64,000 bases of DNA from Limnobacter sp. SAORIC-580 (GTDB lineage: Bacteria; Pseudomonadota; Gammaproteobacteria; Burkholderiales; Burkholderiaceae_B), in assembly GCF_013004065.1 (NCBI RefSeq), contig NZ_CP053084.1, positions 992,001 through 1,056,000 of the forward strand. Reading direction: 5' to 3'. Under the pieces are notes generated by a model, which saw only the letters and a list, made by a program, of their open reading frames with translations, made no database searches and was not told the origin of the DNA. Each line of letters begins with the position of its first letter. Position 1 is the first letter of the stretch. This document shows, one piece after another, positions 34,876-62,953 of the stretch. The position numbers and the translations under genes were made by a program.

Positions 34876-35530
34876 GGACCACCGCTGCTGTGTGTTGCCC
34901 ACTCGGCGTGGGTTACTAGTTCCGAACTGGCTGGGTGACTTGGGAGCCAAACTTGAAGGGTCACCGCTGCCCGAAAACTTGGCATTTCGGCTTGTTGGCT
35001 TGAGCCTGCACTAAGCCAAGCCCTCCAAAAGTAACGGTCGGGTCTTGGCTTTCGCGCCAGGGCGCGATCGTTAGTCTCGGCGCGCCAAGCCGGCAAGTTT
35101 TCTGACTGGTCATCGTGCGACCCATTGCAAGTTCAGCTCCCAATCCAACGGACCAACGCCTCTGCGCCACCGACCAACTGGCGGCTGCGTTCAAAGCCTA
35201 ATTGGCACTGGTGAATCTCTTCCACCACGCAACTCGGGGCTGGCTTCACAGCCCAATCGGCGGCGGTGTTTCGATCGCCTCGCCTTCAAGAAAACCTGCC
35301 CTTGCGTGCCGAGCAGGGCCGGTGTTGCCCGGCATGGGCGACAGAGAACGGACCCGACCCGCAGTTTAGGAGGGCCGTTCTCAGGCATCGCAAGGCTCAG
35401 CAAGGGATCAACAGGTTTTCTGGCGAGAGAGCGAAATCCAAGCCGATTGAGCTACCAAGAAAGCTGCGAGAGATCGGAACCCAAGCCGATCGGGCAGTTA
35501 ACGCACCGCGAGAGATCGGAACCCAATCCA
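34876..35530 (+). repeat. structured intergenic mosaic repeat, copy 1
   Basis: First of three related elements. It starts at the base after the flhB stop. A left module (34951-35139) is nearly identical to 62470-62658 and holds paired segments AAGCCAAG/CTTGGCTT (35013-35020 with 35044-35051) and a TCGCGC/GCGCGA hairpin. The core (35224-35421) is shared by all copies: AGAAAACCTG (35289-35298) pairs with CAGGTTTTCT (35412-35421) around hairpins 35323-35343 and 35344-35382. The tail has three units about 42-43 bases apart (from 35423, 35466 and 35508) carrying GAGAGATCGGAACCCAAGCC or variants. No protein is conserved between copies. Confidence 0.85.
35289..35421 (+). ncRNA. predicted structured RNA core, copy 1
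   Basis: A 10-bp perfect closing helix encloses two consecutive hairpins: TGTTGCCC/GGGCGACA (loop GGCAT, one U-G pair) and GAGAACGG/CCGTTCTC. The strand is inferred from the shared orientation of all copies and from transcription of flhB; the structure would form on either strand except that the U-G pair favours the plus strand. Family unknown to me. Confidence 0.5.
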
Positions 35531-35574
35531 CAATAAGACGGTAATTCGCCTTCAATTCCACCGTTGAGAAAACC

Positions 35575-35601
35575 TAAAGTTTTCCATAATTGAACCGTTA
35601 A
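35575..35601 (+). promoter_or_regulatory. sigma-28 promoter at the flhA start
   Basis: TAAAGTTT-N11-ACCGTTAA has a perfect -35 box, 6 of 8 in the -10 box and exact spacing. It ends only 7 bases before the flhA ATG at 35609, so transcription would begin on or next to the start codon. Confidence 0.7.
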
Positions 35602-35608
35602 CAACTTG

Positions 35609-37729
35609 ATGGGCGGAATTGTGGCCTCCACCGCATTCTCTTTGGACTTCATTAAAGCAGGCCTGGCCGGCGACAAGGTAAAAACCCTGGGCGCGCCAAT
35701 CTTCATCATCCTGATCCTGGTCATGATGATTTTGCCTGTACCGCCTTTCGCGCTCGATCTGTTTTTCACCTTCAATATTGCAATCAGCCTTATGGTGCTG
35801 GTTGCCGCTTTGTACACCACCCGTCCGCTCGACTTTGCTGCATTCCCTACCATTTTGCTGGTAACCACCCTGTTGCGCTTGAGCCTGAACGTCGCCTCAA
35901 CCCGTGTGGTGCTTATGCATGGTCACGAAGGCCCCGATGCCGCAGGCAAAGTGATTGAAGCATTTGGTCACTTCTTGGTCGGCGGCAACCTTGCAGTTGG
36001 TATTGTGGTGTTCGTCATTTTGATGTTGATCAACTTTGTCGTAATCACCAAAGGTGCTGGCCGAATTGCTGAAGTGTCTGCGCGTTTCACATTGGATGCC
36101 ATGCCCGGCAAGCAAATGGCAATTGATGCGGATTTGAATGCCGGCTTGATCGCTGAAGACGAAGCCCGCAAGCGGCGTGCAGAAGTCAGTCAGGAAGCGG
36201 AGTTCTTTGGTTCCATGGACGGTGCCAGCAAGTTTGTGCGTGGCGATGCCATGGCCGGCATCATGATTCTGATCATCAACATCATTGGCGGTTTCGCGGT
36301 GGGTGTGATGCAGCACGACATGACCTTTGCCGATGCTGGCACGGCTTACGTGCTGCTGGCCATTGGTGATGGTCTGGTGGCGCAAGTACCCGCACTGGTC
36401 ATTTCGATTGCCGCAGGTTTGGTGGTGGCACGCGTGGGGCAGGGGCAAGACATCGGCACCCAGCTGGCCAGCCAATTGCTGAAATCTCCACAGGCCGTGG
36501 GCATTACCGCTGGCATCATGGCTTTGTTGGGCATTATTCCGGGTATGCCCACACTGGTGTTCCTGTTGCTTGCAGGAGGTTTTGGATATTTGTCTTATCA
36601 CCTTTCCCAGAAAGGCAACATACAGAAAGTGGTGGCCACCACTGACGACCAGGCCAAGATCAAGGCCGCCACCACCGAAGCACAAGAAGCCACTTGGGAC
36701 GACCTGGTGCCCATCGACACCATTGCGCTTGAAGTGGGTTACCGACTGATCGCCTTGGTGGACAACAAGCAAGACGGCGATTTGCTCAAACGCATCAAGG
36801 CCATTCGCAAAAAATTTGCACAGGAAATCGGTTTCCTGCCACCTGCCGTGCATTTGCGCGACAACCTGGAACTGCGCCCCTCGGTGTACCGTATTTTGCT
36901 GAAAGGCGTGTGCATGGGCGAAGGTGAAGTGTTCCCGAACCAACACCTGGCCATCAACCCCGGCCGCGTCACCATGCAGTTGCCAGGCCCGCAAACCACC
37001 GACCCGGCATTCGGTTTGCCTGCTGTGTGGATTTCAGATGATCAAAAAGAGAAAGCGAATGCAGCGGGTTACACCGTTGTGGATGCTTCCACTGTGGTGG
37101 CCACGCACCTCTCACATATCTTGCAAACATCAGCAGCCCAATTGCTGGGCCGAACCGAAACCCAACAGCTACTGGACCACTGTGCGAAAAGTTCTCCGAA
37201 AGTGGTGGAAGACCTGACTCCCAAGTTGCTGGATGTTGCCGTGATTCAGAAAGTGCTTCAAAACCTGCTGGAAGAAAGCGTTCACATTCGCGACTTGCGC
37301 ACCATTTTTGAAACCTTGCTCGAGAACGGCGTTCGCACCAAAAACCCGCTTGAACTGACAGCCGCAGTGCGCATTGCCTTGGGCCGTGCCATTGTGCAGG
37401 CTCTGGCTGGTACCACCGAAGACCTGAATGTGCTGGTCATGGAACCCAAGCTGGAACAAATGATCACCCATGCGCACACCGCGGCAGGGCAAGACCAGGT
37501 GGGCATTGACCCCAACCTGGCAGAAAACCTGGCCCGTCAAACTGCCGATGCGGCAGGTCGCCAAGAACAGCTGGGCCAAAGCCCCGTGCTGCTGGTGCCC
37601 GATGCACTGCGCTTGTCCATGGCGCGATTGTTAAAGCGTGCAGCACCCAATCTTCGGGTGTTGTCGCACAGTGAAATTCCTGAAAACCGTACTATCCGCG
37701 TTGCGCAAGTCGTAGGAGCGAAAGCATGA
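35609..37729 (+). CDS. flhA: flagellar export gate protein FlhA
   Basis: Largest export-gate protein and docking platform for chaperone-substrate pairs. The 706 residues have eight membrane spans in the first half, the conserved TLLRLSLNVASTRVVL and MPGKQMAIDADLNAGLI segments, and a cytoplasmic C-terminal half. The ATG at 35609 has no clear ribosome site, and a FliA promoter ends 7 bases before it. A GTG at 35621 is an alternative start. flhF overlaps its end by 4 bases. Confidence 0.96.
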   Translation: MGGIVASTAFSLDFIKAGLAGDKVKTLGAPIFIILILVMMILPVPPFALDLFFTFNIAISLMVLVAALYTTRPLDFAAFPTILLVTTLLRLSLNVASTRVVLMHGHEGPDAAGKVIEAFGHFLVGGNLAVGIVVFVILMLINFVVITKGAGRIAEVSARFTLDAMPGKQMAIDADLNAGLIAEDEARKRRAEVSQEAEFFGSMDGASKFVRGDAMAGIMILIINIIGGFAVGVMQHDMTFADAGTAYVLLAIGDGLVAQVPALVISIAAGLVVARVGQGQDIGTQLASQLLKSPQAVGITAGIMALLGIIPGMPTLVFLLLAGGFGYLSYHLSQKGNIQKVVATTDDQAKIKAATTEAQEATWDDLVPIDTIALEVGYRLIALVDNKQDGDLLKRIKAIRKKFAQEIGFLPPAVHLRDNLELRPSVYRILLKGVCMGEGEVFPNQHLAINPGRVTMQLPGPQTTDPAFGLPAVWISDDQKEKANAAGYTVVDASTVVATHLSHILQTSAAQLLGRTETQQLLDHCAKSSPKVVEDLTPKLLDVAVIQKVLQNLLEESVHIRDLRTIFETLLENGVRTKNPLELTAAVRIALGRAIVQALAGTTEDLNVLVMEPKLEQMITHAHTAAGQDQVGIDPNLAENLARQTADAAGRQEQLGQSPVLLVPDALRLSMARLLKRAAPNLRVLSHSEIPENRTIRVAQVVGAKA

Positions 37730-39060
37730 AGCTGAAAAAATTCACAGCCCCCACCACAAGAGAGGCCTTGCAAAAGCTGCGTGCTGAACTGGGTGAAGAT
37801 GCAATCATTTTGTCCACCAAGCAAACTGCTGCGGGCACTGAGGTATTGGCTGCATCCTCGCAAGACCTGGACACTGTGACAGAGAAACCAGCAGCCCAGT
37901 CGGCGCCGCTGTCGTGGACCAAGGCTGAGCGCACACAATTGGCCGCTCAGGACGCAACACGTCAGCCTACACCTGCGGAGAAAATTGCGCAGCAGGTGGC
38001 CGCGCAGCGTGACGTGCTGATCAACCGCGCGCCCGCTGTGCATCAAATACCGCAAACCCTGCCTGAACATGACATGATTTCGGAGGTGGCCAAGCGGCGT
38101 TCACAAGCGGCCAGCGATTCCATGGCCAGCGAGCAAACTGCAGTGCTGGAAGAAATCAAGCAAATGCGCCAGTTGTTGAAAGACCAAATGGCCATGATCA
38201 CCTGGCGCGATGCCTTGGAGAAAAATCCCCAGCGCGGCGAGTTGTGGAACCAGCTCACCCAATCCGGATTCTCCCCCCTGTTTGCACGCACAGTGGTTGA
38301 AAAACTTCCTGCGGATCTTTCCGACAGCCAGGTGCAAGACTGGGTAATGAATGTAATCAAGAAGAACCTGAATGTGGTGCCAGCCGACAAAGACATTGTT
38401 GAAACCGGCGGCACATTCGCCCTGGTCGGCCCCACCGGTGTGGGCAAAACCACCACCACCGCCAAACTGGCCGCGCGTTGCGTGGTGAAGTATGGTGCCG
38501 ACTCGCTGGGCTTGATCACCACCGACAGCTACAGAATTGGCGCGCAAGACCAGCTGCGCATTTACGGCAAAATTCTGGGCGTGCAGGTGTACACCGCACA
38601 AACCCATGCCGACCTGGCCCAGTTGCGCAATACCATGCAGCGCAAGCGGCTTATTTTGATTGACACTGTGGGCATGGGGCAACGCGATTCGCGCGTGGCC
38701 GAGCAAACCAAAATTCTGACCGACAGCCATGTAAAGCGCGTGTTGCTGCTCAACGCCACCAGCCAGCCAGAAACGCTGGATGACGTGGTGCGCCATTACA
38801 AAAGCACGGGCCTGAATGGAGCCATTCTCTCCAAACTGGACGAAGCCATCAAAATTGGCGGAGTGCTTGATGTTGTCATGCGCCACAAATTGGCCTTGCA
38901 CTACATTGCCACCGGCCAGCGCGTGCCTGAAGATCTTTTCCCGGCCGATCCCCGTGTGTTGGTGCACCGCGCCATGCGCGCGCGCAGCAGCCAGGCTTTT
39001 CAGGCCTCGAGCGAGGAATTGAAATGGAAAATGGCCCAAGTCTCTGCGACTGGAATCTAA
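37726..39060 (+). CDS. flhF: flagellar placement GTPase FlhF
   Basis: SRP-type GTPase that sets flagellar position and number. The 444 residues have a basic N terminus (MKLKKFTAPTTREALQKLR), a variable B region, and the NG domain with the P loop GPTGVGKTT at 235-243 and later G motifs (LIDTVGMGQRD, SKLDEA). ATGA overlap with flhA implies coupled translation. Presence of flhF suggests polar flagellation, although flhDC is also present. Confidence 0.94.
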   Translation: MKLKKFTAPTTREALQKLRAELGEDAIILSTKQTAAGTEVLAASSQDLDTVTEKPAAQSAPLSWTKAERTQLAAQDATRQPTPAEKIAQQVAAQRDVLINRAPAVHQIPQTLPEHDMISEVAKRRSQAASDSMASEQTAVLEEIKQMRQLLKDQMAMITWRDALEKNPQRGELWNQLTQSGFSPLFARTVVEKLPADLSDSQVQDWVMNVIKKNLNVVPADKDIVETGGTFALVGPTGVGKTTTTAKLAARCVVKYGADSLGLITTDSYRIGAQDQLRIYGKILGVQVYTAQTHADLAQLRNTMQRKRLILIDTVGMGQRDSRVAEQTKILTDSHVKRVLLLNATSQPETLDDVVRHYKSTGLNGAILSKLDEAIKIGGVLDVVMRHKLALHYIATGQRVPEDLFPADPRVLVHRAMRARSSQAFQASSEELKWKMAQVSATGI

Positions 39061-39083
39061 AGTTTCATGGTCTACTGAATCCT

Positions 39084-39842
39084 ATGGATCAAGCCAAAAC
39101 ACTTCGACACTTGTTGGGCCGCAAGGCCGCCACCATTCACCCGATTCTTGGTGACATGGGGAGCGATTACGCAGCCTGCCTGGCCCGTTTTGTGTTGGAG
39201 CAGCAGGCACGTTCTGAACGCTCAACCGTGTTGTTTGACGGGTCCGCCGCAGGCCTTCCTCAACTGTTGCCTGCGCATGCCCGCACCGATCTGATCGAAT
39301 TTTTCAATGGCAAGCTGAATCTGGAAGACCAGGTCATCGAGCTTGCTGAATCCCAATACCTGGTGGTGGCCCGAATCGGTCTTGAAGCCCTGGCCAAAAA
39401 GCCGGCCCAATCCCTGGCCCTGCTGGGCAAGCTTCACCGCATGCCGGTCAGCTGTGACCGCTTTTATGCCACCTTGCCTTACGAGGCAGTGGAACTGGCC
39501 AAGGCATTTTCCCCGCAAGACGACTGGTACTGGGTGGTGCAACCCACCGCCCGATCCGTTACCCGCGCCTTTCAGGCCATTCGTTCTTCAAAAGGGGTAG
39601 ACGAAAATATTCACCATCGTGTTATTGTTGCGGGTGTAAGAAGCACAGATGAAGCCGATCACGTGTTCGCAAATTTGCTGGAAAGCACTTCGAGCTTTCT
39701 GGTCAATCCCTTGCAGTATGCGGGGCATTTGCCAGCCTTGCCCTCGGGCAAAGCCTTGAACCAGGTCGGTCGGGAGATGATTGCGGCAGGTCGGAGAATC
39801 GCAAAGGCCATTTGCTCTTTCGACGAACACGCACTGGCGTAA
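39084..39842 (+). CDS. flhG: FlhG/FleN-like protein with degenerate P loop
   Basis: A 252-residue MinD/ParA-fold protein between flhF and fliA, the usual place of flhG. The N-terminal helix MDQAKTLRHLL keeps the DQAxxLR motif that activates FlhF in characterised FlhG proteins. The Walker A loop is absent: the matching stretch reads ILGDMGSDYAAC, without Gly-Lys-Thr. A later stretch (TARSVTRAFQAIRSSKG) resembles the family's TPEPTSITDAY region. The ATG at 39084 is chosen for the family N terminus; the frame is open to 39024. It may regulate FlhF without hydrolysing ATP. Confidence 0.75.
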   Translation: MDQAKTLRHLLGRKAATIHPILGDMGSDYAACLARFVLEQQARSERSTVLFDGSAAGLPQLLPAHARTDLIEFFNGKLNLEDQVIELAESQYLVVARIGLEALAKKPAQSLALLGKLHRMPVSCDRFYATLPYEAVELAKAFSPQDDWYWVVQPTARSVTRAFQAIRSSKGVDENIHHRVIVAGVRSTDEADHVFANLLESTSSFLVNPLQYAGHLPALPSGKALNQVGREMIAAGRRIAKAICSFDEHALA

Positions 39843-39867
39843 TAACAAGACAGGAAGCATAGACTCC

Positions 39868-40584
39868 ATGTACACAGCCCAGGGCACTTTAGACAAATCA
39901 AAGCAGGTGGACCAGTACATCCCTCTGGTTCGCAGGTTGGCGCATCACCTCATTGCCAAGTTGCCCGCATCGGTGCAAATCGATGATCTGATTCAAGCCG
40001 GCCTGATCGGCCTGATGGACGCCATTACCCGCTTTGAAGAAGGGCAGGGCGCCCAGTTTGAAACCTATGCCAGCCAGCGAATTCGTGGCTCCATGCTCGA
40101 TGAACTGCGCTCAGCCGACTGGATGCCGCGCGGCGTTCGCCAGGCACAACGAAAAATTGAAACCGCAACCCTGAAAGCCGAGCAAAAACTGGGGCGCTCC
40201 GCCTCTGAGAAAGAGATTGCTGAAGTCTTGGGCGTGAGTCTGGACGAATACCAGGAAATGTTGTTTGATTCGCGCGGTGCATCGCTGGTGTTTTACGACG
40301 ACTATGCAGACGACGGCGATGGCGAAGGTTATCTGGATCGCCAGATAGGTGGCGACGAAGAGGCCAATCCGCTTGAAATGCTGGGTGATCAACGTTTTCG
40401 GGAAAACCTGATCCAGGCCATTGAAGACCTGCCCGAGCGTGAAAAAATGCTCATGGGACTGTATTATGAGCAAGAGTTAAACTTCCGTGAAATCGCCGCT
40501 GTCCTTGGCGTGACTGAATCCCGGGTGTGTCAGTTGCACACCCAGGCGGTGAGTCGCCTCAAAGCCAAGCTTCGCGAACACTAA
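39868..40584 (+). CDS. fliA: flagellar sigma factor FliA (sigma-28)
   Basis: Sigma factor for class III flagellar promoters. The 238 residues hold region 2 (VRRLAHHLIAKLPASVQIDDLIQAGLIGLMDAI; key part DDLIQAGLIGL), region 3 and the region 4 helix-turn-helix (FREIAAVLGVTESRVCQLH). AGGAAG precedes the ATG at 39868; the frame is open further up. The eleven promoter matches reported here would be its targets, and FlgM (43450) its inhibitor. Confidence 0.97.
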   Translation: MYTAQGTLDKSKQVDQYIPLVRRLAHHLIAKLPASVQIDDLIQAGLIGLMDAITRFEEGQGAQFETYASQRIRGSMLDELRSADWMPRGVRQAQRKIETATLKAEQKLGRSASEKEIAEVLGVSLDEYQEMLFDSRGASLVFYDDYADDGDGEGYLDRQIGGDEEANPLEMLGDQRFRENLIQAIEDLPEREKMLMGLYYEQELNFREIAAVLGVTESRVCQLHTQAVSRLKAKLREH

Positions 40585-40590
40585 GCACAC

Positions 40591-42489
40591 ATGGCTGATC
40601 CCAAAGCCCAGGGAAAACCGAAAACTTTTGAGCAATCCCGCACCAGGGTCAATCGTTCCCTGATTTTGGTGATTCTCACCGGCATTGGTCCGCTGGCCTT
40701 GACCGCTTTTTACATGGCAGCCACCACCTCCGATCCCGCCAACTGGAATTTAACTGTACTTTTCACCTTGGTGCTTGGCGTGTTGGGTGCCTGGTTCATG
40801 GGCAACAAGCTCATGTCTGGCCTGCTTGAAATCATCCGCTCGTCCATCCAGTCTGAAAGCCAGTTGCGCCGCCTCATGGAACTCTCGGGCGATTGGTACT
40901 GGCACCAGGATTCGGCCCACACCATTGTGCGAATCATCTACCGCGGCAAAGATCAAAACAGCAACGCCAAAAGCGGGTTCAAATTGCCTTTTGATGGTTT
41001 GGCCCGGTGGGACGTCGAAGGCTTGAAGTGTATTGACCCGCGCTACAACTGGGACACTTTCAAAGAGCTACTGGACAGTCACCAACCCTTTGACCGGGTT
41101 TGCTTTGAGTACTGGCCCCAAAACTCTGAGCGTATTATTTTTGAATCCACTGGCCGGCCTTTGTACAACGCCAACGGCGATTTTGTAGGCTACATGGGCG
41201 TGTCCTCCGATCGCACGCAGAAACGCCTGAATGAACAGTTGCTTTCCCTGCAACGTTCGCTGTTGCAAGGTGTGTTGCTTTCTGCACCCATTCCCGAGTT
41301 GGCGGCATCGTATGCGCGTGGTTTGAAAAACTGCCTCACCGTGCATGCCGAAGTGGTACTGGGTTTTCGCGACAAATCCGAGCACAACCACTGGCGTGTG
41401 CGGGGTACCAACCCCAACCTTCGCATGCCACTTGAAAAAGGGCAGGCATTTTGGGACAAGGCCGAGCAACTCTGTGAGCCCCTGGAAGGCCACGACCAGC
41501 ATGGTTTGGTCTGGATCGCCAAAATGAAACCCGAGCATTATTTTGAAGACAATTGGGCAAGCGAACTTGGCATTACTGCGGTGTGGTTTGCACTGCGCAA
41601 AGCCGTTGAGCCCAATCAGCCCGAGTACTGGATCATGGTGGCCCAGCAAGGTGTCAACAACACAGGTCATGATGACGTGTTGCGCGTTTTAACCGCCATT
41701 CGCCTGCTTGGTTTGTGTGTAGAGCGTCGGGTTTTTGAAGACGATTTGCAGGGCTTGAACGGCACGCTCGAGCAGCGCATCAACGACCGCACTGCCGAGC
41801 TTACTCGCAGCAACTCCGAACTCGAGGCCTTCACCTACACGGTGTCGCATGATTTGCGTGCGCCCCTTCGCGCCATTGATGGTTTTTCCAGCATTCTGAA
41901 GGAAGACTTCGCCGACAGCCTGCCGGAAGATGCCCGCGGCCTGCTCGATCGAATCAGCAACAACGCACGTCAAATGGGCGGTCTTATTGACGGCTTGCTC
42001 GACTTTTCGCGTTTGCTGCGCACCGATGTTGCGCGCGTCAAAGTAGACCAGCAACAGCTGCTGGATCAAATTCTGGATCAACTCGACGCCCGGCGCAAAA
42101 ACGTGGTGGAGTTGTGCGAGCTTCCACCCGTGTATGCCGACCCCGTGTTGTTGAAACAGGTGTGGATGAATCTGATCGACAACGCCCTGAAGTTCAGCAG
42201 CAAAGCGGCGCAGCCAAAGGTCACCATTGACTGTGAAAAAACAGGTCGTTTTTACAGTTTTAGTGTGCAAGACAACGGCGCTGGTTTTGACATGAAGTAC
42301 GCCGACAAACTGTTCAACGTGTTTGAGCGTTTGCACCACAAAAAAGATTTCGATGGCACCGGGGTAGGCCTGGCCATTGTGAAACGAATCATTGAACGTC
42401 ACGGCGGTGAAATCAGCGCCAAGGGTGAGTTGGGCCAGGGGGCCTGCTTCACATTCACCTTGCCTGAGCACGCCGACCTGAACGACTAA
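40591..42489 (+). CDS. membrane sensor histidine kinase, phytochrome-type kinase core
   Basis: A 632-residue kinase. Two membrane segments (about 22-45 and 52-72) with a tiny loop are followed by a PAS domain (about 90-220), a GAF-like region (about 220-390), a HisKA domain with H in SHDLRAPLRAIDGF (about 421) and an HATPase domain (DNGAGF, GTGVGLAIVKRI). The kinase core resembles bacteriophytochrome and Rcp-linked kinases, but no chromophore-binding GAF cysteine is evident. It starts 6 bases after fliA, so it is co-expressed with the sigma factor; the next gene is its likely partner. Confidence 0.88.
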   Translation: MADPKAQGKPKTFEQSRTRVNRSLILVILTGIGPLALTAFYMAATTSDPANWNLTVLFTLVLGVLGAWFMGNKLMSGLLEIIRSSIQSESQLRRLMELSGDWYWHQDSAHTIVRIIYRGKDQNSNAKSGFKLPFDGLARWDVEGLKCIDPRYNWDTFKELLDSHQPFDRVCFEYWPQNSERIIFESTGRPLYNANGDFVGYMGVSSDRTQKRLNEQLLSLQRSLLQGVLLSAPIPELAASYARGLKNCLTVHAEVVLGFRDKSEHNHWRVRGTNPNLRMPLEKGQAFWDKAEQLCEPLEGHDQHGLVWIAKMKPEHYFEDNWASELGITAVWFALRKAVEPNQPEYWIMVAQQGVNNTGHDDVLRVLTAIRLLGLCVERRVFEDDLQGLNGTLEQRINDRTAELTRSNSELEAFTYTVSHDLRAPLRAIDGFSSILKEDFADSLPEDARGLLDRISNNARQMGGLIDGLLDFSRLLRTDVARVKVDQQQLLDQILDQLDARRKNVVELCELPPVYADPVLLKQVWMNLIDNALKFSSKAAQPKVTIDCEKTGRFYSFSVQDNGAGFDMKYADKLFNVFERLHHKKDFDGTGVGLAIVKRIIERHGGEISAKGELGQGACFTFTLPEHADLND

Positions 42490-42502
42490 AAGGATATTTG
42501 CC

Positions 42503-43433: not shown

Positions 43434-43449
43434 AATCTTCAATCCTCGG

Positions 43450-43740: not shown

Positions 43741-43787
43741 GATGTCCTCCGCGTTGGGCAGAGCCTAAGTGGGTTTCGTATGTTTTC

Positions 43788-43814: not shown

Positions 43815-43854
43815 ACGAATTCTCGAAAGAATTCCTACTTTTTGAGGATCCCCC

Positions 43855-54300: not shown

Positions 54301-54922
54301 ACTTGAAGGGGCGCCGTTGCTGTTTGTTGCCCACTCGGCATGCGTTACTTGTTCCGCACAGAAAACCGCTTGATCCCTTGTTGAATGGATTCTTGCTCAC
54401 CTCGCTCGGCAAAAGGGCGGGCCGAGTCTCGGTGTCGGCATGAGGCCGACCGCTACGGATCCACTCAAACGGGGCGGTTTTCTTGAAGTGCGCCCCAAGC
54501 AATCCCACTGCCGAGTTGGCTCAAACCCGCAGAGTGCGCCCACCTGCAAGCTCAGCTCCCGAATCTCCCGACCAACGCGCTTTCACCACCACGCAACTCA
54601 CGGCTGGTTTCATCGCCCAATCGGCGGCGGTGTTTCGATCGCCTCGCCTTCAAGAAAACCTGCCCTTGTGTGCCGAGCAGGGCCGGTGTCGCCCAGAATG
54701 GGCGACAGTGAACGAACCCGACCCGCAGTTTAGGAGGGTCGTTCTCAGGCATCGCGAGGCTCAGCAAGGGAGAAACAGGTTTTCTGGCGAGAGATCGGAA
54801 CCCAAGCCGAGTGGGCGACTAATGAGCTCCGAGAGATCGGAACCCAAGCCAATTGGGCGATTAAGAAAGCTGCGAGAGAGTTGAACCCAAGCCGATGATC
54901 GGGCAGTTAACGAACAGCCGAG
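54301..54922 (+). repeat. structured intergenic mosaic repeat, copy 2
   Basis: Fills the gap between the convergent flgL and LuxR-type regulator genes from stop codon almost to stop codon. The left module differs from copies 1 and 3: GAAAACCGC (54361-54369) pairs with GCGGTTTTC (54474-54482) and encloses CTCGGC/GCCGAG (54405-54410 with 54421-54426) and GTCGGC/GCCGAC hairpins. The core (54588-54785) keeps the AGAAAACCTG/CAGGTTTTCT helix and both hairpins with compensatory changes. The tail has three units about 42-43 bases apart (54787, 54829, 54872) and the start of a fourth. Confidence 0.85.
54653..54785 (+). ncRNA. predicted structured RNA core, copy 2
   Basis: Same fold as copy 1. Hairpin 1 is TGTCGCCC/GGGCGACA (54687-54707), fully Watson-Crick. 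Hairpin 2 is GTGAACGA/TCGTTCTC (54708-54746): the G-C pair of the other copies has become A-U, with one mismatch elsewhere. The closing helix is unchanged. Confidence 0.5.
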
Positions 54923-54927
54923 CAAGC

Positions 54928-55557
54928 TTAGATCAGCCCGTTCTCCAACGCATAGCGCGTCAGTTCACCATTGGTTTTCATGCGCATTTTTTCAAGAATC
55001 CGTGCCCGGTAAACGCTCACAGTCTTCGGGCTCAGCGACAGTTCATCCGCAATTTCGCTCAGTTTCTTTCCTGCAGCAATCATGCGAATGGTTTGAAATT
55101 CACGGTCACTCAGCGTCGCGTGCAGCGGTTTCTCCGAGTCTTCGGTCAGGTGGCTGGCCAGCGATTCTGCCAGCTCAGGCGTAATGTATTTGCGACCCGC
55201 TGCAATCACCTGAATCGCATCTACCAGTTTTTCAGGCGCCGTATTTTTTGTCAGATAACCCGAGGCGCCAGCCTTCAAACAACGCACCGCATACTGGTCT
55301 TCCGGGTGCATCGACAACATCAGGATTTTCAGGGCAGGGTATTTGTCTTTCAGAATTTTGACAATGTCCACCCCGTTTTTGCCGGGCATTGAAATATCCA
55401 GAATCGCCAGGTCAATCGTGTGGCATGTCATGGCTTTCATGATTTCCGAATATTCGCCCGCCTGGGCCACCACCTGCACAAATCCCGTGTCATCCAGTAA
55501 CTGCTTCAGGCTTCCCCGAAGCAATGCATGGTCATCTGCCAGCAGCACCTTAATCAT
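54928..55557 (-). CDS. LuxR/NarL-type response regulator
   Basis: A 209-residue regulator: receiver domain with D8/D9 and phospho-acceptor D54 (LDISMPGKNG), then a C-terminal LuxR-type helix-turn-helix (LSDREFQTIRMIAAGKKLSEIADELSLSPKTVSVYRARI region, key part KLSEIADELSLSPKTVSVYR). The ATG at 55557 overlaps the kinase stop by 8 bases and has a GGCGGGAA site; longer in-frame starts are less likely. It probably is phosphorylated by the kinase encoded upstream. Targets unknown. Confidence 0.92.
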   Translation of the reverse strand: MIKVLLADDHALLRGSLKQLLDDTGFVQVVAQAGEYSEIMKAMTCHTIDLAILDISMPGKNGVDIVKILKDKYPALKILMLSMHPEDQYAVRCLKAGASGYLTKNTAPEKLVDAIQVIAAGRKYITPELAESLASHLTEDSEKPLHATLSDREFQTIRMIAAGKKLSEIADELSLSPKTVSVYRARILEKMRMKTNGELTRYALENGLI

Positions 55558-57088
55558 TTCCCGCCTCACCTGTCTGAATGCTTCTTGGTATGGACACCAT
55601 GACCGTTGTCCCGGATCCCAAGGATCCGCTGACATCGACCCAACCCTCGAAGGCTGCAACCCGTTCTTGCATGCCACGAAGGCCGAACGATGTTTCTTTT
55701 AATTTATCAGTATTCTCGATTCCGCGACCATTGTCACGAATCTCCAGTGTTAATTCACTTTCTGTTACAAACAGTTCGACGTCTACCCGTGTGGCTTGCG
55801 CGTGTTTCACGATGTTTGTCAGTGCTTCCTGCAAAATCCTGAACAAGGCCGTGCTTTGTTCGCCATCGAGATCCAGTTCATCGACATTGCACTGGAAAAC
55901 GCCCTCAATCTGGGTGCGTTTCTGAAAGTCGTTCATCTGCCACTCCAGGGCAGGAATCAAGCCATAGTCCAGAATGCCGGGGCGCAAATCCTTGGCAATC
56001 CGCTGGCTGCTGGCCAGCAAATGTTCAATCAATTCCAGCATGTCATCCAGCTTTTCCTGCACCGCAGAATCAGCGGGCATGTTTTTGTTCAGCCAGGCCA
56101 CATCCGCTTTCAGCTTGGTCAGCGATCCACCCATGTCATCGTGAATTTCACGGGCTATTGCCCCGCGTTCCTGTTCACGCCGTTTCTCAAACTCGGTGGT
56201 CACCAGGCGCAACTCGGTTTGTGCATTCAGCAAGCGTTCTTCGGCCTGTTTGCGATCAGAAATATCGAGTAACACGCCGTCCCAAACAAACATGTTTCCA
56301 CGTGGTTTGGCCACTGCATTCATGTAAACCCAACGCGATTCGCGTTTGCCGTAATTTTTGATTCGACCCTCCCAGCTCACAGGCACACCTGGTTTGGGTG
56401 GGTCCATCAGTAGCTCAAAAAGGGTCGCAGCATCGTCGGGTTCAAACTGCTCAAAGAAATAATGCGGATTCTCAAGAAACAGCCTGGGTGGCACGCCAAA
56501 CAGACGTACCACGCCCTCGCTGACGAACGGCACAGTAGGCCGCTGTATCGAGGGGCCTGATTGCATCTGAAAAATAATGCCAGGAATATTTTCGGCGATG
56601 GCGGCAAATCGCCGCTCGGACTCCCGCTGCGCAAGCTCGGCAGCAGCCAGGCTGCGCCGTTCATTTGCGGCGCGCAGTGAGCGCTCAATCGCAGGCACCA
56701 AACGTGCCATTTTGTCTTTCATCAAATAATCGTCGGCACCGGCACGCATGGCCTCTACAGCCACATGTTCACCAATGCTGCCCGACACGATAATGAAAGG
56801 GATATCCAGCCCGGAGTCGCGCACCACGCGCAGGGCTTCCTCTGAACCAAAACCAGGCAAATTGTGGTCAGAAATCACCACTTGCCATTCTTCGTGTTCC
56901 AGACGTTTTCGCAGGTCTTCGATGCGGTCTACCCGCGTTGCCATGTACTTCAAACCGCCTTGTTTCAAGCGGTAACACATTAGCTCGAAGTCCGAATCAT
57001 TGTCTTCCACCACCAGAACTTTCAATCCACCATCTGAAAAGTTACTGATGTCCAGCAATGACGGGGGTAGTCCTTTGGATTCACTCAT
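55550..57088 (-). CDS. cytoplasmic REC-PAS sensor histidine kinase (HisKA_3)
   Basis: A 512-residue kinase without membrane segments. Order: N-terminal receiver domain (about 22-140, phospho-acceptor D74 in SDHNLPG), PAS domain (about 155-282), HisKA_3 dimerisation domain with H316 (EIHDDMGG) and an HATPase domain (DNGRGIEN, GLRGMQERV). A receiver placed before the sensor and kinase means its activity may be gated by another phosphodonor, such as CheA or the Hpt protein. It lies immediately upstream of its likely LuxR-type partner. Confidence 0.9.
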   Translation of the reverse strand: MSESKGLPPSLLDISNFSDGGLKVLVVEDNDSDFELMCYRLKQGGLKYMATRVDRIEDLRKRLEHEEWQVVISDHNLPGFGSEEALRVVRDSGLDIPFIIVSGSIGEHVAVEAMRAGADDYLMKDKMARLVPAIERSLRAANERRSLAAAELAQRESERRFAAIAENIPGIIFQMQSGPSIQRPTVPFVSEGVVRLFGVPPRLFLENPHYFFEQFEPDDAATLFELLMDPPKPGVPVSWEGRIKNYGKRESRWVYMNAVAKPRGNMFVWDGVLLDISDRKQAEERLLNAQTELRLVTTEFEKRREQERGAIAREIHDDMGGSLTKLKADVAWLNKNMPADSAVQEKLDDMLELIEHLLASSQRIAKDLRPGILDYGLIPALEWQMNDFQKRTQIEGVFQCNVDELDLDGEQSTALFRILQEALTNIVKHAQATRVDVELFVTESELTLEIRDNGRGIENTDKLKETSFGLRGMQERVAAFEGWVDVSGSLGSGTTVMVSIPRSIQTGEAGND

Positions 57089-57268
57089 TGTCTGTTCGCT
57101 TGTTGTTGGTTTTTATTGTTGTGTGCAGGATCAAAGCGAGAGATAACGCCCTTTCAAGGTTTTAATCCTTGCATTATTTTATGCATCTTATCGGAACATA
57201 TCAGGGTATAGAACTCATTCGCGTCGGGGCACCTCCCAAATTGTGTTAACCCCGCGACAAAGGCCCTG

Positions 57269-58261
57269 ATGAACCGACCCCCCGTGAAATTTGAATTCTC
57301 CAAAGCACAATATGCCAATGATGCCGTAGCCGGTGCCAAACAGGCTGCCGCAGCGGTCAATCGCAGTTTGTTAAGCGATGACAATGCAGACCGGGAGTTT
57401 GAATTCAATGACAAGGACTTTGCCCGTGTACGCGCGCTCATCCTTAAAATTGCAGGTATTTCACTGGCACCCAGCAAGCAAAGCATGGTGTACAGCCGAT
57501 TGGCCCGCCGCTTGCGCGCATGCAACCACAGCCGCTTTTCTACCTATCTGGATGCGCTGGAGTCCAACTCAAGCAACCCGGAATGGGAGCACTTCACCAA
57601 TTCGCTGACCACCAACCTCACTTCTTTTTACCGTGAGGCACATCATTTCGATATTCTGAAAAAGCAGTTGCAATCACTTTCGCGCAACGCACGAATCGAG
57701 ATGTGGTGCAGTGCAGCTTCCACCGGCGAAGAGCCGTACACCATGGCCATTACCGCCATGGAGGCCTTCAACAGCATGAATCCGCCCGTGCGCATTCTGG
57801 CCACCGACATTGACACCAAGGTGTTGGACCATGCCAAAAAAGGGGTGTACCGCATGGACCAGGTCGACAAAATTCCCGATGAAATACTGCGCAAGTATTT
57901 TTTGAAGGGAAAAGGCGAAAGCGAAGGCTTGATCCGCGTACGCCCCGAGGTGCAAGCATTGTTGACATTCCGAAAGCTGAACCTGATGGAGAATGTGTGG
58001 TCCCTGCGCCCCGGCTTTGATGCCATTTTCTGTCGGAACGTGATGATCTATTTCGAGAAAGATGTGCAGCTGCAAATTCTCAAGCGGTTTGCCCCCCTGA
58101 TGAATCCAAATGGTTTGTTGTACGCAGGCCATTCCGAGAATTTCGCCATGGCGCGAGACTATTTCACCTTGCGTGGTAAAACCGTGTATACCGTCAACAC
58201 CGACAAGGCCGCGAAAACCGGCACTGGTGGTGAAGGTCAGGCGCGTCAGGTTACTGCATGA
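57269..58261 (+). CDS. cheR: chemoreceptor methyltransferase CheR
   Basis: SAM-dependent methyltransferase acting on receptor glutamates. The 330 residues include a 45-residue variable N terminus, the CheR helical domain (about 50-115) and the catalytic domain with the SAM-binding segment (EMWCSAASTGEEPYTMAI) and FDAIFCRNVMIYF. It starts a cheR-cheD-cheB operon; the 180-base gap upstream contains no clear FliA promoter. Confidence 0.95.
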   Translation: MNRPPVKFEFSKAQYANDAVAGAKQAAAAVNRSLLSDDNADREFEFNDKDFARVRALILKIAGISLAPSKQSMVYSRLARRLRACNHSRFSTYLDALESNSSNPEWEHFTNSLTTNLTSFYREAHHFDILKKQLQSLSRNARIEMWCSAASTGEEPYTMAITAMEAFNSMNPPVRILATDIDTKVLDHAKKGVYRMDQVDKIPDEILRKYFLKGKGESEGLIRVRPEVQALLTFRKLNLMENVWSLRPGFDAIFCRNVMIYFEKDVQLQILKRFAPLMNPNGLLYAGHSENFAMARDYFTLRGKTVYTVNTDKAAKTGTGGEGQARQVTA

Positions 58262-58860
58262 GCACAGGGCTTCTCACCTCTCCTGCTGCTGCGCACTGCG
58301 CAACGTTGCCGGTGAAGAAAATCATCATGCCCGGCGATTATTTTGTATCGTGGGCACCTGCTGAAATTTCCACCCTGCTTGGCTCGTGTGTGTCCGCATG
58401 TGTGTGGGACAGCCATCGAAAAATTGGGGGGCTGAATCACTTCATGTTGCCCGATTCGCCCTCTGAGGCCCGCAGCCTTGGCGACAAAACCAAGTCTTTG
58501 CGCTACGGCTTGTACGCCATGGAATGCCTGGTCAACGACTTGTTGACCATGGGCGCGAAGCGAGAACACCTCAGCGCCAAAGTATTTGGCGGTGCCAATA
58601 TTACTGGTGCCTTGAATACCCAGCACGTGGGTCGCAGAAATGCAGAATTTGTGATCGACTTTCTACAGAAAGACAAAATCAAAGTAGTGGCATCCGATTT
58701 GGGTGGGCCACACAGCCGTCGCATTCGTTTCAATACCCAAACCAGTGCCGTGCGTGTTGAGCGAGTGGCCAGTGCCAATTCAGCCGCCTTGCAACAGGAA
58801 AAACGCTACAGCGAAAAGATCAACAAAGACCCCGTCAATGGCGACATTGTGTTTTTCTAA
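58258..58860 (+). CDS. cheD: chemoreceptor glutamine deamidase CheD
   Basis: A 200-residue CheD. The catalytic Cys is in [12 protein letters not shown] and the His in GGLNHFMLP. CheD deamidates receptor glutamines and can interact with CheC-type phosphatases in other bacteria. The ATGA overlap with cheR indicates coupled translation. Confidence 0.95.
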
Positions 58861-58871
58861 GGGCCCATGAG

Positions 58872-60011
58872 ATGAACAAAATCAAAGTGTTGGTGGTAGA
58901 CGATTCGGCCTTGATCCGAAACTTGATGAGCAAGATCATCAATTCGCAGCGCGACATGGAAACTGTGGCCACGGCACCCGATCCATTCATTGCCAGAGAT
59001 CAAATCAAGAAATTCAATCCCGATGTGATTACACTGGATATAGAAATGCCCAAAATGGATGGCATTGAGTTTCTGGAAAAAATCATGCGTTTGCGGCCCA
59101 CGCCGGTGTTGATGGTGTCTACATTGACTGAACGTGGAACCGACGTAACCTTTCGCGCCCTTGAACTTGGAGCAGTTGATTTCGTGACCAAACCGAAACT
59201 GGACATCAGCCAAGGCATGATCGACTATGCCAACGAAATTACCGACAAAATTCGTGCTGCCTACGCCGCCCGTTTTCGTCTAAACCGGCTGCCACCGAAA
59301 CCTGCTGCGCAAGCGCCCGCAGCGCAAACTGACCCGGTCACCGGCATGGTGGTACCGGCAGAAGTGGCCAAGCCCGCGCCCACCAACAATGCACTGGGCA
59401 ATCGCTTTGCAGCCACCGAGAAGCTTGTGTTGATTGGCTCATCTACAGGTGGTACCGAAGCGATTCGAGTCATTCTGGAGCAGCTGCCCAAAGACAGCCC
59501 CGCAATTCTGATTACTCAACACATGCCTGCTGGTTTTACCAAAAGCTTTGCAGACCGCTTAAACCAGGTGTGCAATATCACCGTGAAAGAAGCTGTGCAC
59601 GGTGAGCGCGTATTGCCAGGCCATGCCTACATTGCGCCCGGTGACAAACACCTGTTGTTGGGGCGCAGTGGTGCCAACTACATTTGCCAGCTCTCTGATT
59701 CTGAGCCAGTCAACCGTCACCGTCCGTCGGTGGAAGTGTTGTTCAAGTCGGGCCAGGAAGTCTCGCCGCGCAATATCGTGGGCATCATGCTTACCGGGAT
59801 GGGCAAAGACGGTGCACAAGCCATGGCTGACATGAAAAAAGCGGGTTCCTACAATATTTGCCAGGACGAGGCCAGCTCGGTGGTGTTCGGCATGCCGCGC
59901 GAAGCAATCGCCCTGGGCGCTGCCGATGAAGTGGTGCCGCTGAACCTGATTGCCAAGCGTTTGCTCGATTACCTCTCAAAAATTGGCGGGCGCTCAGCCG
60001 TTCGAATTTAA
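58872..60011 (+). CDS. cheB: chemotaxis methylesterase CheB
   Basis: Receiver plus methylesterase, 379 residues. Receiver D10/D11 and phospho-acceptor D56 ([10 protein letters not shown]); a Pro/Ala linker (about 143-180); catalytic domain with S in [11 protein letters not shown] in ITQHMPAGF and D in [10 protein letters not shown]. It removes receptor methyl groups when phosphorylated by CheA. It ends one base from the convergent EAL gene. Confidence 0.96.
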
Positions 60012-60012
60012 C

Positions 60013-61731
60013 TTAGTCAAGCGTGGTTTTATTCAGCCAGTTTTTCAGGCTGTCCATATCCATGGGGCGGGAAAACCAATAGCCTTGCAGCCTGTCGCAT
60101 CCCATCTGGATCAAGCTTTCTCGCTGCGCTGCGGTCTCAATGCCTTCGGCATGCACAATCAGGCCCAATGCATGTGCAAGGTCAATTACAGCTTTCACAA
60201 TCATGTGACTGTTTTTGTCCTCCAGCAAATCCATCACGAAGCTTTTGTCGATTTTCAATACATCCACGGGTAGTTGGCGCAGGTAGTTCAGCGAGGCATA
60301 GCCAGTACCAAAATCATCCATCGCAATTTGCGAGCCTTGTGCTTTCAGTTTGTTCAGTGCGTCCACCGTGCGGGCCATGTCATCAATCGCTGCAGATTCA
60401 GTGACTTCAAACTCAATCCATTTCGGGTCAAGCCCCGCATTTCGAATGGTTTGCTGGGCCTTGGCCGGAAACTCCGGATTCAACAACTGACCAGCCGAGC
60501 AATTGACCGCGCACCACAGCATGTGCTCTTGCTGGTGCAGCTCCAGCACTTTTTTGCTGCTCGATTCAATCACCCAGTCACCCAGTGCATCAATCAAGCC
60601 CGAATCTTCGGCAACGCCAATAAACTCGCTGGGCATGATCCGGCCCAATTCGGGGTGGGTCCACCTTACCAGGGCCTCAAGACCGCAAATGCGGCCCGTT
60701 TTAAGGTCTTCAATGGGCTGAAAGTCAAGCACCAGCTCGTTGCTTTCAATGCCTTTGGCCAAGCCCAGTTCAATGGTTTTTCGGCGTTTGGCGAGATCAT
60801 GAATTTCCGCATCCAGAACATTCAACAATTCCAAGCCGCGCGACTCGATCACATGCGCCACTGACTGTGCATGCGTGACCAACTCTGCTGCATGTTGGCC
60901 ATGCACACCTGGGCGCGCCAACCCCAGGCGCATATTGGGGCGTACCGCAATGTTGTCCACTGTGAATACACGGTTCAGGTTGGCTTCAAACTCGCACAGA
61001 GTGTCAGCAATCAAGGTTTGGTCTGCACTCCAGTCCAGCTTGTTGGTCAGCACCACCAGCACATTGTCAGACCAGCGACAAATAATGTCCTGTTTGAATG
61101 TGTCCCGAATTCGCTCCACAATTTTTTCCAGCATGTTGCGCCGAATGCGCGGGTCCACTTCCGGGCGGCGTGCCTGGTTCCTCGACACGTTCACGCTGAG
61201 CAGGCACAGGTCGTTGTCCTCGCCAGAATTTGTGCTCAGGCCCGACAAGGTTTTCACCAAACCCTGGCGGTTTAAAAAACCGGTGGCTGAATCAAAATAC
61301 ACCGCCCGCCTGTGGGCTTGCTCAAGCAGCAGTTTCTCACGGCGAAGCCGGTGTGTGTGTATTTCCCGGCGTACCGCAGGAATCAGGCGCTCGGGTTTGG
61401 ACTTCTCCACATAATCGCGCACACCTTCGTGCATGGCCTGCACGCCCAAAGCGTCGTTGGCCAGTCCTGAGAGCAGAATCATGGGTGTTTCAGGTCGCAG
61501 GGTCTGAACCATTTCAATGGCCCTCTCGTGCGTCAGTTGCGGCATGGAATAGTCGCAAATCACCAAATCAGGTTCGATGTCGTCCAGCGTTGTTCGGAGC
61601 GTTTCCTCGCTGTGGGCGTGCCGGACAATTGCTGTGTGCCAGGTTTTGGTCAGCTGCCGCTTGATCAATAGAAAATCGTCGTCGCTGTCGTCGACAACAA
61701 TGATTCTGGGCGCTTCCTGTTCTATCGTCAT
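60013..61731 (-). CDS. REC-GGDEF(degenerate)-EAL protein, likely c-di-GMP phosphodiesterase
   Basis: A 572-residue protein. Receiver domain with D14/D15 and phospho-acceptor D60 (ICDYSMPQ); a GGDEF-like domain (about 140-300) whose active-site motif reads RWSDNVLVV instead of GGDEF, so cyclase activity is unlikely; and an EAL domain with GLEALVRW, FEVTESA, DDFGTGYASL and HAEGIET, all expected for an active phosphodiesterase. The ATG at 61731 gives the receiver N terminus; the frame is open to 61791. Lowering c-di-GMP would relieve the YcgR brake. Confidence 0.92.
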   Translation of the reverse strand: MTIEQEAPRIIVVDDSDDDFLLIKRQLTKTWHTAIVRHAHSEETLRTTLDDIEPDLVICDYSMPQLTHERAIEMVQTLRPETPMILLSGLANDALGVQAMHEGVRDYVEKSKPERLIPAVRREIHTHRLRREKLLLEQAHRRAVYFDSATGFLNRQGLVKTLSGLSTNSGEDNDLCLLSVNVSRNQARRPEVDPRIRRNMLEKIVERIRDTFKQDIICRWSDNVLVVLTNKLDWSADQTLIADTLCEFEANLNRVFTVDNIAVRPNMRLGLARPGVHGQHAAELVTHAQSVAHVIESRGLELLNVLDAEIHDLAKRRKTIELGLAKGIESNELVLDFQPIEDLKTGRICGLEALVRWTHPELGRIMPSEFIGVAEDSGLIDALGDWVIESSSKKVLELHQQEHMLWCAVNCSAGQLLNPEFPAKAQQTIRNAGLDPKWIEFEVTESAAIDDMARTVDALNKLKAQGSQIAMDDFGTGYASLNYLRQLPVDVLKIDKSFVMDLLEDKNSHMIVKAVIDLAHALGLIVHAEGIETAAQRESLIQMGCDRLQGYWFSRPMDMDSLKNWLNKTTLD

Positions 61732-61833
61732 TGAAGGTTTTATGATGGTGTTATTGGCAAAGAAACGACCGCTTTCCTGTATCCTGCACACTTCTGCAGA
61801 GGCTGTCTAGTCGGGCAATTCACGAGAAAAGAC

Positions 61834-62391
61834 ATGAGCAAGGCTTTCACGAAAGAAAACGATTCAGAATTCGAGGACGATGGCCCCGACGCGGCCCCAG
61901 CCTTACCTCAAGGCTTGAAAAATTACATCACACCCAAAGGCTACCGCCGCTTGCGCGACGAACTCACCCACCTTGTGAAAACCGAGAGGCCCGAGGTGGT
62001 GTCTGTGGTGTCTTGGGCAGCGTCCAATGGGGATCGCTCTGAAAATGGAGATTACCTGTACGGCAAAAAACGCCTGCGTGAAATTGATCGGCGCATTCGT
62101 TTTCTCACCAAGCGCACTGAAATTGCCGAGGTGGTAGATCCCGCCACGCAGCAAGAGCTTGAAAGCATTTTCTTCGGCGCTACAGTCACCTATATCAATT
62201 CAAAAGGTGAGGAACTGACCGTGAAAATAGTGGGGGTTGACGAAGTGGATACCGCCAAAGGGCACATCAGCTGGATTTCTCCGGTGGCCCGTGCTTTGTT
62301 GAAAGCAAAGGAGGGCGATGTTGTGCAATTGATGACACCGGCAGGGCGCGATGAGCTAGAGATTGTCGAAGTGCGGTATGTGATTGATTGA
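61834..62391 (+). CDS. greB: transcription elongation factor GreB
   Basis: GreA/GreB-family transcript cleavage factor of 185 residues. The N-terminal coiled coil has the acidic tip (ASNGDRSENGDYLYGKKRLREIDRRI region, key part SNGDRSENGDY) that reaches the RNA polymerase active site, and the C-terminal FKBP-like domain follows. The 30-residue acidic extension and the basic patch favour GreB over GreA. Not a flagellar gene; it marks the end of the cluster. Confidence 0.93.
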   Translation: MSKAFTKENDSEFEDDGPDAAPALPQGLKNYITPKGYRRLRDELTHLVKTERPEVVSVVSWAASNGDRSENGDYLYGKKRLREIDRRIRFLTKRTEIAEVVDPATQQELESIFFGATVTYINSKGEELTVKIVGVDEVDTAKGHISWISPVARALLKAKEGDVVQLMTPAGRDELEIVEVRYVID

Positions 62392-62953
62392 CTGGGTGAC
62401 TGAGAGCCGAACTTGAATAGTCGGCGTCGCGGTTTGCGGCCAACTCGGCGTGGGTGATTTCTGATCTGAACTTGAAGGGTCACCGCTGCCCGAAAACTTG
62501 GCACTTCGGCTTGTCGTCTTGAGCCTGCACTAAGCCAAGCCCTCCAAAAGTAACGGTCGGGTCTTGGCTTTCGCGCCAGGGCGCGATCGTTAGTCTCGGC
62601 GCGCCAAGCCGGCAAGTTTTCTGACTGGTCATCGTGCGACCCATTGCAAGTTCAGCTCTCCGCACTCCCGTGCAGCGCTTCGCCATCACCACGCAACTCG
62701 CAGCTGTGTTTGGTGCCCAATCGGCGGCGGTGTTTCGATCGCCTCGCCTTCAAGAAAACCTGCCCTTGCGTGCCGAGCAGGGCCGGTGTTGCCCAGCATG
62801 GGCAACAGAGAACGGACCCGACCCGCCTTTTTGGAGGGCCGTTCTCAGGCATCGCAAGGCTCAGCAAGGGAGAAACAGGTTTTCTGGCGAGAGAGCGAAA
62901 TCCAAGCCGAGTGGGCTACCAAGAAAGCGGCGAGAGATCGGAACCCAAGCCGA
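62392..62953 (+). repeat. structured intergenic mosaic repeat, copy 3
   Basis: Occupies the whole gap between the convergent greB and spoT genes, from stop codon to stop codon. Left module 62470-62658 is nearly identical to 34951-35139 of copy 1. The core (62688-62885) keeps the AGAAAACCTG (62753-62762) and CAGGTTTTCT (62876-62885) helix and both hairpins. The tail has two units 43 bases apart (62887 and 62930), the second running into the spoT stop codon at 62954-62956. Confidence 0.85.
62753..62885 (+). ncRNA. predicted structured RNA core, copy 3
   Basis: Same fold as copies 1 and 2. Hairpin 1 is TGTTGCCC/GGGCAACA (62787-62807), fully Watson-Crick with a T-A pair where copy 2 has C-G. Hairpin 2 is GAGAACGG/CCGTTCTC (62808-62846). 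Confidence 0.5.

What the first reader, a model, noticed from the sequence alone, without database searches (positions are those of the whole stretch)
34876..62953. A three-copy intergenic element whose core shows compensatory base changes, suggesting an undescribed structured RNA
Three gaps (34876-35530, 54301-54922, 62392-62953) hold related sequences in the same orientation. The 133-base core is closed in all copies by AGAAAACCTG pairing with CAGGTTTTCT. Inside, hairpin 1 reads TGTTGCCC/GGGCGACA, TGTCGCCC/GGGCGACA and TGTTGCCC/GGGCAACA, so pairing survives changes on either arm (U-G, C-G, U-A). Hairpin 2 reads GAGAACGG/CCGTTCTC twice and GTGAACGA/TCGTTCTC once: one G-C pair has become A-U, with one mismatch. 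Reading frames across the core change amino acids freely (for example CCPAWATENG against CRPEWATVNE). Selection therefore appears to act on pairing, not on protein. I do not recognise a named family.
Basis: partly seen in the sequence, partly recalled or inferred. Interest (0 to 1): 0.9.

Follow-up and report, generated by a model that had tools for sequence, protein, structure and literature searches.

The report
Paired giant hairpin repeats in Limnobacter
Short non-coding stretches after genes in Limnobacter bacteria carry large, precisely folding hairpins whose letters change in matched pairs and whose variants are swapped between long-standing sites; this looks like an undescribed family of structured repeats whose job is still unknown.

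Summary
The "133-base core" is one of two related giant hairpins in a ~500-620 bp intergenic element. The window's genome (Limnobacter, by names of relatives) has 24 copies with the full hairpin plus one partial, not three. A covariance model hits 12 of 16 Limnobacter genomes and 0 of 252 others of the family (top candidates only). Pairing is selected: in 41 sequences 18 of 40 pairs changed on both sides while 97.7% of cells stayed paired. Very different inner sequences share one scaffold. One strand folds better in 81 of 88 copies. In 17 of 24 own copies an upstream hairpin is present; its CGC type is the same hairpin reversed. Sites are shared between species, yet hairpin types swap among them. 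Copies sit at gene 3' ends (1 of 88 between divergent genes). Orientation follows the replication fork in 69 of 88, but only in sites shared with the own genome; G009-private sites show no bias (14 of 25). No Rfam, RAYT or own integron integrase explains it. Best reading: a new genus-specific family of REPIN/BIME-like hairpin repeats, recombining among fixed sites; a 3'-end RNA function is nearly as likely. "Structured RNA" is partly supported; transcription is untested.

The parts
34876..35530 (+). Element copy 1 (between flhB and flhA, same strand): 5' arm repeats, HP1, linker, HP2, 3' arm repeats
34973..35102 (+). HP1 of copy 1, TTG type (GAAAACTTG...CAAGTTTTC)
35290..35420 (+).
54301..54922 (+). 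Element copy 2 (after a Flagellin_N gene; convergent with a minus-strand gene)
54361..54482 (-). HP1 of copy 2, CGC type; matches the HP2-B covariance model on the minus strand
54654..54784 (+). HP2 of copy 2, insert type A
62392..62953 (+). Element copy 3 (convergent: greB and the minus-strand reading frame 62954-64000)
62492..62621 (+). HP1 of copy 3, TTG type
62754..62884 (+). HP2 of copy 3, insert type A
35421..35529 (+). 3' arm units of copy 1 (GAGAGATCGGAACCCAAGCCGAT and variants)
54785..54905 (+). 3' arm units of copy 2
62885..62953 (+). 3' arm units of copy 3

Best explanation
A Limnobacter-specific family of mosaic intergenic elements built of giant strand-specific hairpins: HP2 (CTG type) alone or with an upstream HP1 (CGC type = the same hairpin reversed, or TTG type), with arm repeats on both sides. 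Shown: the pairing constraint, one scaffold under several sequence types, reversed CGC/CTG pairs, sites shared between species with module swapping, and gene-3'-end location. Inferred: it works like a REPIN/BIME, that is, as a non-coding repeat recognised as a folded single strand and once spread by an unidentified or lost enzyme; today the modules are shuffled among old sites by homologous recombination through the shared arms. Spread on the lagging-strand template is a possible cause of the fork orientation, but that link is weak because private copies show no bias. Read-through transcripts would carry the fold, so a role at mRNA 3' ends is possible as well.
For: Copies. Covariation: A3, 18 of 40 pairs changed on both sides (8.1 in shuffles, at most 9 when slid), score 0.207 (0.090 and at most 0.041); A1 24 of 49 pairs, A2 7 of 63. 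Shared scaffold in types A, B, C, HP1-CGC and diverged G009 copies; a G004 copy also folds into one long hairpin. Strand preference: sense fold stronger in 81 of 88 HP2, 16 of 19 of the fork-opposed ones included; HP1-CGC folds better on the other strand in 20 of 22, HP1-TTG in 14 of 21. Orthologous type-A cores hardly closer than other copies (0.054 vs 0.062, 26 comparisons); types swap at one locus. Fork: 23 of 24 in G000, 18 of 22 in G011:C1, 28 of 42 in G009; convergent gaps 42 of 53.
Against: No RAYT/Y1 transposase in the own genome or in any carrier but G008, and no partner enzyme found. No fresh insertion or target duplication was shown. Fork bias is absent at sites not found near an own copy: G009 14 of 25, G011 5 of 8; private copies would be expected to show it best if insertion caused it. 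HP1 was found by the strict criterion in only 43 of 88 copies (G009 12 of 42). Strand preference is not uniform: crude count of the outer arms GU 299 vs AC 329; columns chosen from the reverse strand alone GU 24 vs AC 22 and 17 vs 14; fork-oriented G009 copies 30 vs 26; the mixed G000 alignment folds slightly better in reverse. Copies are related by descent, so p-values overstate.
Confidence: 0.42

Rival explanations
1. Structured RNA at mRNA 3' ends: the hairpins are transcribed by read-through from the upstream gene and stabilise, process or terminate the message.
For: Only 1 of 88 copies lies between divergent genes and 53 between convergent ones (background gaps 100 and 80 of 407); tandem gaps lean to the genes' direction, 22 of 34 (p = 0.12); G-U exceeds A-C on the sense strand over hairpin columns taken from both strands' structures (45 vs 18 columns); complex three-way-junction fold with heavy covariation.
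Against: Orientation in convergent gaps follows the fork (42 of 53), which transcription alone does not predict; HP1-CGC lies reversed; terminator scans of two gaps found no more than chance, and no promoter; the basal stem's T run is only four in the usual type.
Confidence: 0.38
2. Replication- or chromosome-linked DNA sites: oriented hairpins bound by a host protein, as gyrase or IHF bind REPs.
For: Fork co-orientation 69 of 88, strongest at sites shared between species (G009 14 of 17, G011 13 of 14), as selective retention would give; invariant basal-stem sequence with freely varying tip; 1 of 24 G000 copies in the 38% of the chromosome opposite ori (region chosen after seeing it).
Against: Bias absent at private sites; 4 of 16 congeners lack a model hit, so it is dispensable; the terminus gap is not seen in G009.
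Confidence: 0.12
3. Integron attC sites, or classical RAYT-mobilised REPINs.
For: Strand-specific imperfect hairpins with conserved base and variable tip, after stop codons; reversed pairs as in REPINs.
Against: No integron integrase over the cut-off in the own genome (2 of 16 congeners have one); PF01797 absent from 15 of 16 genomes; hairpins of about 122-132 nt; the greB gap is element-free in three congeners with the gene order kept.
Confidence: 0.04
4. Chance palindromes or hidden coding sequence.
For: Long ORFs run through some copies.
Against: Covariation, model hits down to E = 3e-31, no Pfam domain in two ORFs tested, insert lengths that break the frame.
Confidence: 0.01

Closest known systems
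REPIN / BIME (REP doublets, RAYT-associated)
   Same: Dispersed intergenic repeats, reversed pairs of hairpins, mosaic, located downstream of genes and between convergent genes (PMC3733652 abstract and passages; PMC6006769 passages).
   Different: Hairpins of about 122-132 nt with three-way junctions instead of 20-65 nt; no RAYT in 15 of 16 genomes; about 25 copies; several sequence types on one scaffold.
MITE-like intergenic repeats (ERIC, Correia/NEMIS, YPAL, RUP) and pneumococcal BOX
   Same: Taxon-restricted non-coding elements with stem-loops, some transcribed (PMC2229807: abstract and section list seen; BOX recalled).
   Different: No target duplication found here; module swapping at old sites.
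Integron attC sites
   Same: Folded single strand, conserved base and variable tip, position after stop codons (recalled).
   Different: No integrase over the cut-off in the own genome, no cassette array seen at the copies, larger hairpins.
Rfam structured RNAs
   Same: Covarying multi-helix fold.
   Different: No match at gathering thresholds over the window, nor at E <= 1 on two elements.

Membership tests
REPIN / REP (RAYT-associated) | RAYT / Y1 (HUH) transposase in the genome | tested here: not met
   PF01797 in 1 of 16 Limnobacter genomes (G008), not in the own genome
REPIN / REP (RAYT-associated) | two hairpins in reversed orientation | tested here: met
   for the CGC/CTG pairs: HP1-CGC hits model R1 on the strand opposite to HP2 in all 6 own pairs; for TTG/CTG pairs and copies without HP1 not shown
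REPIN / REP (RAYT-associated) | short (20-65 nt) hairpin with GTAG/GTGG foot | tested here: not met
   inserts of 103-114 nt in 75 of 77 listed copies; basal stem reads GAAAAC or GAAAGC; foot judged by eye
Integron attC | integron integrase (TIGR02249 over cut-off) in carriers | tested here: not met
   over cut-off in 2 of 16 genomes, not in the own genome
Integron attC | RYYYAAC/GTTRRRY core boxes | not tested
   looked at by eye only
Rfam family | covariance model match | tested here: not met
   0 matches
MITE of a DNA transposon | terminal inverted repeats with target-site duplication | tested here: inconclusive
   no clean empty/filled pair was found; remnants and element-free gaps only
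Structured non-coding RNA | covariation beyond shuffled and slid controls | tested here: met
Structured non-coding RNA | transcript | not testable with these tools
   no RNA-seq available
Intrinsic terminator | stem followed by a U tract, above chance | tested here: not met
   0 and 1 found vs 0.8 and 1.5 expected in two gaps

The most novel reading that the evidence does not exclude
A new class of bacterial repeat: large three-way-junction hairpin cassettes of near-constant size and freely varying sequence, often in reversed pairs, held at old docking sites and exchanged between them, recognised as folded single strands by an unknown non-HUH protein, with selection keeping them aligned to the replication fork.
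Probability: 0.25. Interest if true: 0.82.

Novelty: new variant of a known kind. Interest (0 to 1): 0.6.

Why it matters
It is a tractable case in which selection keeps a complex single-strand fold while its sequence turns over, with a built-in comparison (two hairpins on opposite strands, known fork and gene direction) that can separate RNA-level from DNA-level selection. If the hairpins spread or swap without a RAYT, an unknown enzyme remains to be found in a small genus.

Tried and rejected
RAYT/REP driver: PF01797 search, negative in 15 of 16 genomes. Integron attC: TIGR02249, not over the cut-off in the own genome. Phage or plasmid origin: blastn of one A-type and one B-type element against plasmids and phages, no match; of 63 exact 15-mer hits in viral contigs none had CAGGTTTTC within 200 nt and two had CGGGTTTTC. 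dif-site search found nothing, so replichores rest on dnaA at position 16 of G000, half the length of G000 and G009, and GC skew. Literature: searches (Limnobacter; repeat families) showed no description of this element in the listings I saw; the library is open-access only. A purely DNA-level reading (A-C as common as G-U) came from the crude arm alignment and was weakened, not removed. A mutational origin of the strand preference was tested by splitting fork-oriented and opposed copies: the preference stays in opposed copies, but recombination between copies blurs this.

Changed on re-check: the gene contexts came from a simple longest-ORF rule that misread at least window copy 2, so I repeated them with a codon-scored caller. 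That replaced 'tandem gaps 30 of 34 with the fork, 19 vs 15 with the genes' by 26 of 34 and 22 vs 12, and 'convergent 37 of 49' by 42 of 53. Splitting shared and private sites showed that the fork bias is confined to shared sites.
Full report
WHAT IS THERE. Each also holds a second hairpin upstream, so the window's elements read: arm repeats, HP1, linker, HP2, arm repeats. HP1 is the TTG type in copies 1 and 3 and the CGC type in copy 2. The stems continue outward into the arms, for instance GCCCAATCGGC before HP2 with GCCGATTGGGC after it, and the 3' arm unit is repeated. By the strict 9-nt stem criterion HP1 is found in 17 of 24 own copies, 14 of 22 in G011:C1 and 12 of 42 in G009; the rest may lack it or have it diverged. 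The neighbours are flhB and flhA, a Flagellin_N gene, and greB.

HOW MANY AND WHERE. The window is 992001-1056000 of a 3,297,222-bp single-contig genome. Named genomes with the sequence are Limnobacter species and a few MAGs named only to class or order. The own genome has 17 full-length copies of the 133-nt core and 25 copies by a 19-mer (28 sites, 3 dropped by eye), 24 of them with the whole hairpin. A covariance model from 41 mostly B-type hairpins gave 31 hits in the own genome: 24 HP2, and 7 HP1-CGC, 6 of which pair with an HP2 on the opposite strand and one is alone. By a 15-mer with one mismatch, 11 of 16 Limnobacter genomes have 12-44 matches and 5 have 1-2 (up to one control match per genome). 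By the model 12 of 16 have it, and 0 of the 252 other genomes of the family searched, with 13 candidates scored per genome and stricter filters; in an overlapping sample of 399 genomes of the order only two Limnobacter genomes, with 8 candidates scored. One G004 copy, with E = 1.3e-17, folds into one long hairpin.

PAIRING IS SELECTED. In alignment A3 (41 distinct sequences, 40 pairs) 97.7% of cells form standard pairs against 91.0% after shuffling; 18 pairs changed on both sides against 8.1; covariation score 0.207 against 0.090, and at most 0.041 when slid. The closing stem varies too: of 42 G009 copies 13 read GAAAGCCTG/CAGGCTTTC and one GAAAATCTG/CAGATTTTC. Types A, B, C and HP1-CGC, and G009 copies with wholly different arms, fold into the same plan: basal stem, CCC/GGG stem, a 3' bulge of 5 nt (6 in type C), then a junction with two hairpins; the TTG type does not show this plan as clearly. 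The insert is 103-114 nt in 75 of the 77 copies listed (others 59 and 124).

WHICH STRAND. Over pair columns taken from both strands' predicted structures, G-U exceeds A-C: 49 vs 26 cells in A1 (one row, L117, left out) and 97 vs 17 in A2, 45 vs 18 columns together (p = 0.0009). On columns predicted from both strands alike it is 23 vs 9 columns (p = 0.02); on columns from the reverse strand alone 24 vs 22 and 17 vs 14 cells. The sense strand folds more strongly in 81 of 88 copies from three genomes, including 16 of 19 opposed to the fork. HP1 folds better on the element's minus strand: 20 of 22 CGC and 14 of 21 TTG. Against: the outer arms in a crude alignment show no such excess (GU 299, AC 329), fork-oriented G009 copies give 30 vs 26, and the mixed-type G000 alignment folds slightly better in reverse (-29.3 vs -26.0). 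On balance the preference belongs to each hairpin rather than to one transcript through the element.

OLD SITES, MOVING MODULES. At greB, 14 of 16 congeners could be compared (G002 and G010 gave only distant matches): seven have a two-hairpin element, one is cut by a contig end, three have short remnants (93, 186, 98 nt) and three have none (72, 42, 14 nt). HP1 switches between TTG and CGC, and the HP2 insert between A and B, while the flanks stay. For 24 of the 25 own copies a gap with an element between matching flanks was found in at least one other genome; this is biased, because most of those loci were fetched for their elements. From the other side, 17 of 42 G009 and 14 of 22 G011:C1 copies sit where the own genome has one. 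At one site with 95-96% identical flanks, HP1 and its surroundings were replaced. Orthologous type-A cores are hardly more alike than other copies (0.054 vs 0.062; nearest in 4 of 26 comparisons). I read this as recombination through the shared arms; it is inferred.

ORIENTATION. dnaA lies at 16-1383 of G000; GC skew flips near the middle of G009 and near 0.57 Mb of G011:C1. With the fork: 23 of 24 in G000, 28 of 42 in G009 (p = 0.044), 18 of 22 in G011:C1, 69 of 88 in all. Genes in the fetched stretches are 52-60% co-oriented, so G000 exceeds its gene bias (p = 2e-5). With codon-scored gene of 88 copies lie between convergent genes, 34 in tandem gaps and 1 between divergent genes, against 80 convergent and 100 divergent of 407 gaps longer than 60 bp. 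In convergent gaps 42 of 53 follow the fork (p = 2e-5); in tandem gaps 26 of 34 follow the fork and 22 of 34 the genes (p = 0.003 and 0.12). Against a general rule: at sites not found near an own copy the bias is gone (G009 14 of 25, G011 5 of 8), while shared sites have it (14 of 17, 13 of 14). Counting the own copies plus those private ones gives 42 of 57 (p = 0.0005), most of it from G000. So the polarity marks an old set of sites, which fits retention at least as well as directional insertion.

WHAT IT IS. No Rfam match, no plasmid or phage relative of two elements, no Y1 transposase except in G008, no own integron integrase. By anatomy it works most like a REPIN/BIME, but it fails the RAYT and short-hairpin tests and is not filed as one. 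Elements that use folded single strands are known to target the lagging-strand template (PMC6006769, passages); REPs are known to sit downstream of genes and between convergent genes, and CGTC REPs lack a known transposase (PMC3733652, passages). The chief rival, nearly as likely, is an RNA function at mRNA 3' ends.

VERDICT. Real, strongly supported as selected structure, undescribed in the sources searched, mechanism open.

Noticed in passing
window 19319-23715 (minus strand): Four flagellin genes in a row; two pairs are near-identical (99.5% over 930 bp and 94.6% over 868 bp), suggesting recent duplication or conversion.
   Followed up: partly
L260 (G009:C1:2438434-2439375): A full-length integron integrase (444 bits, over cut-off) in one Limnobacter; a second, broken one over the cut-off in G001, and partial strong matches in G014 and G008.
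   Followed up: no
L098, L099, L102: Three own copies use a second class of outer arms (such as GCAATGCCCTCGC...GCGAGAGAGGGTATGC) around the same basal stem.
   Followed up: partly
L097 (G000 81793): A lone CGC hairpin about 2 kb upstream of the element at 83714, without its own HP2.
   Followed up: no
G000 1.10-2.34 Mb: Only 1 of 24 copies lies in this terminus-side 38% of the chromosome (p = 2e-4, region chosen after the fact); not seen in G009.
   Followed up: partly
L188 (G009 69931) against G000 83828: At this shared gap the hairpins come in the opposite order relative to the flanks, so the element is turned round between the two species.
   Followed up: no
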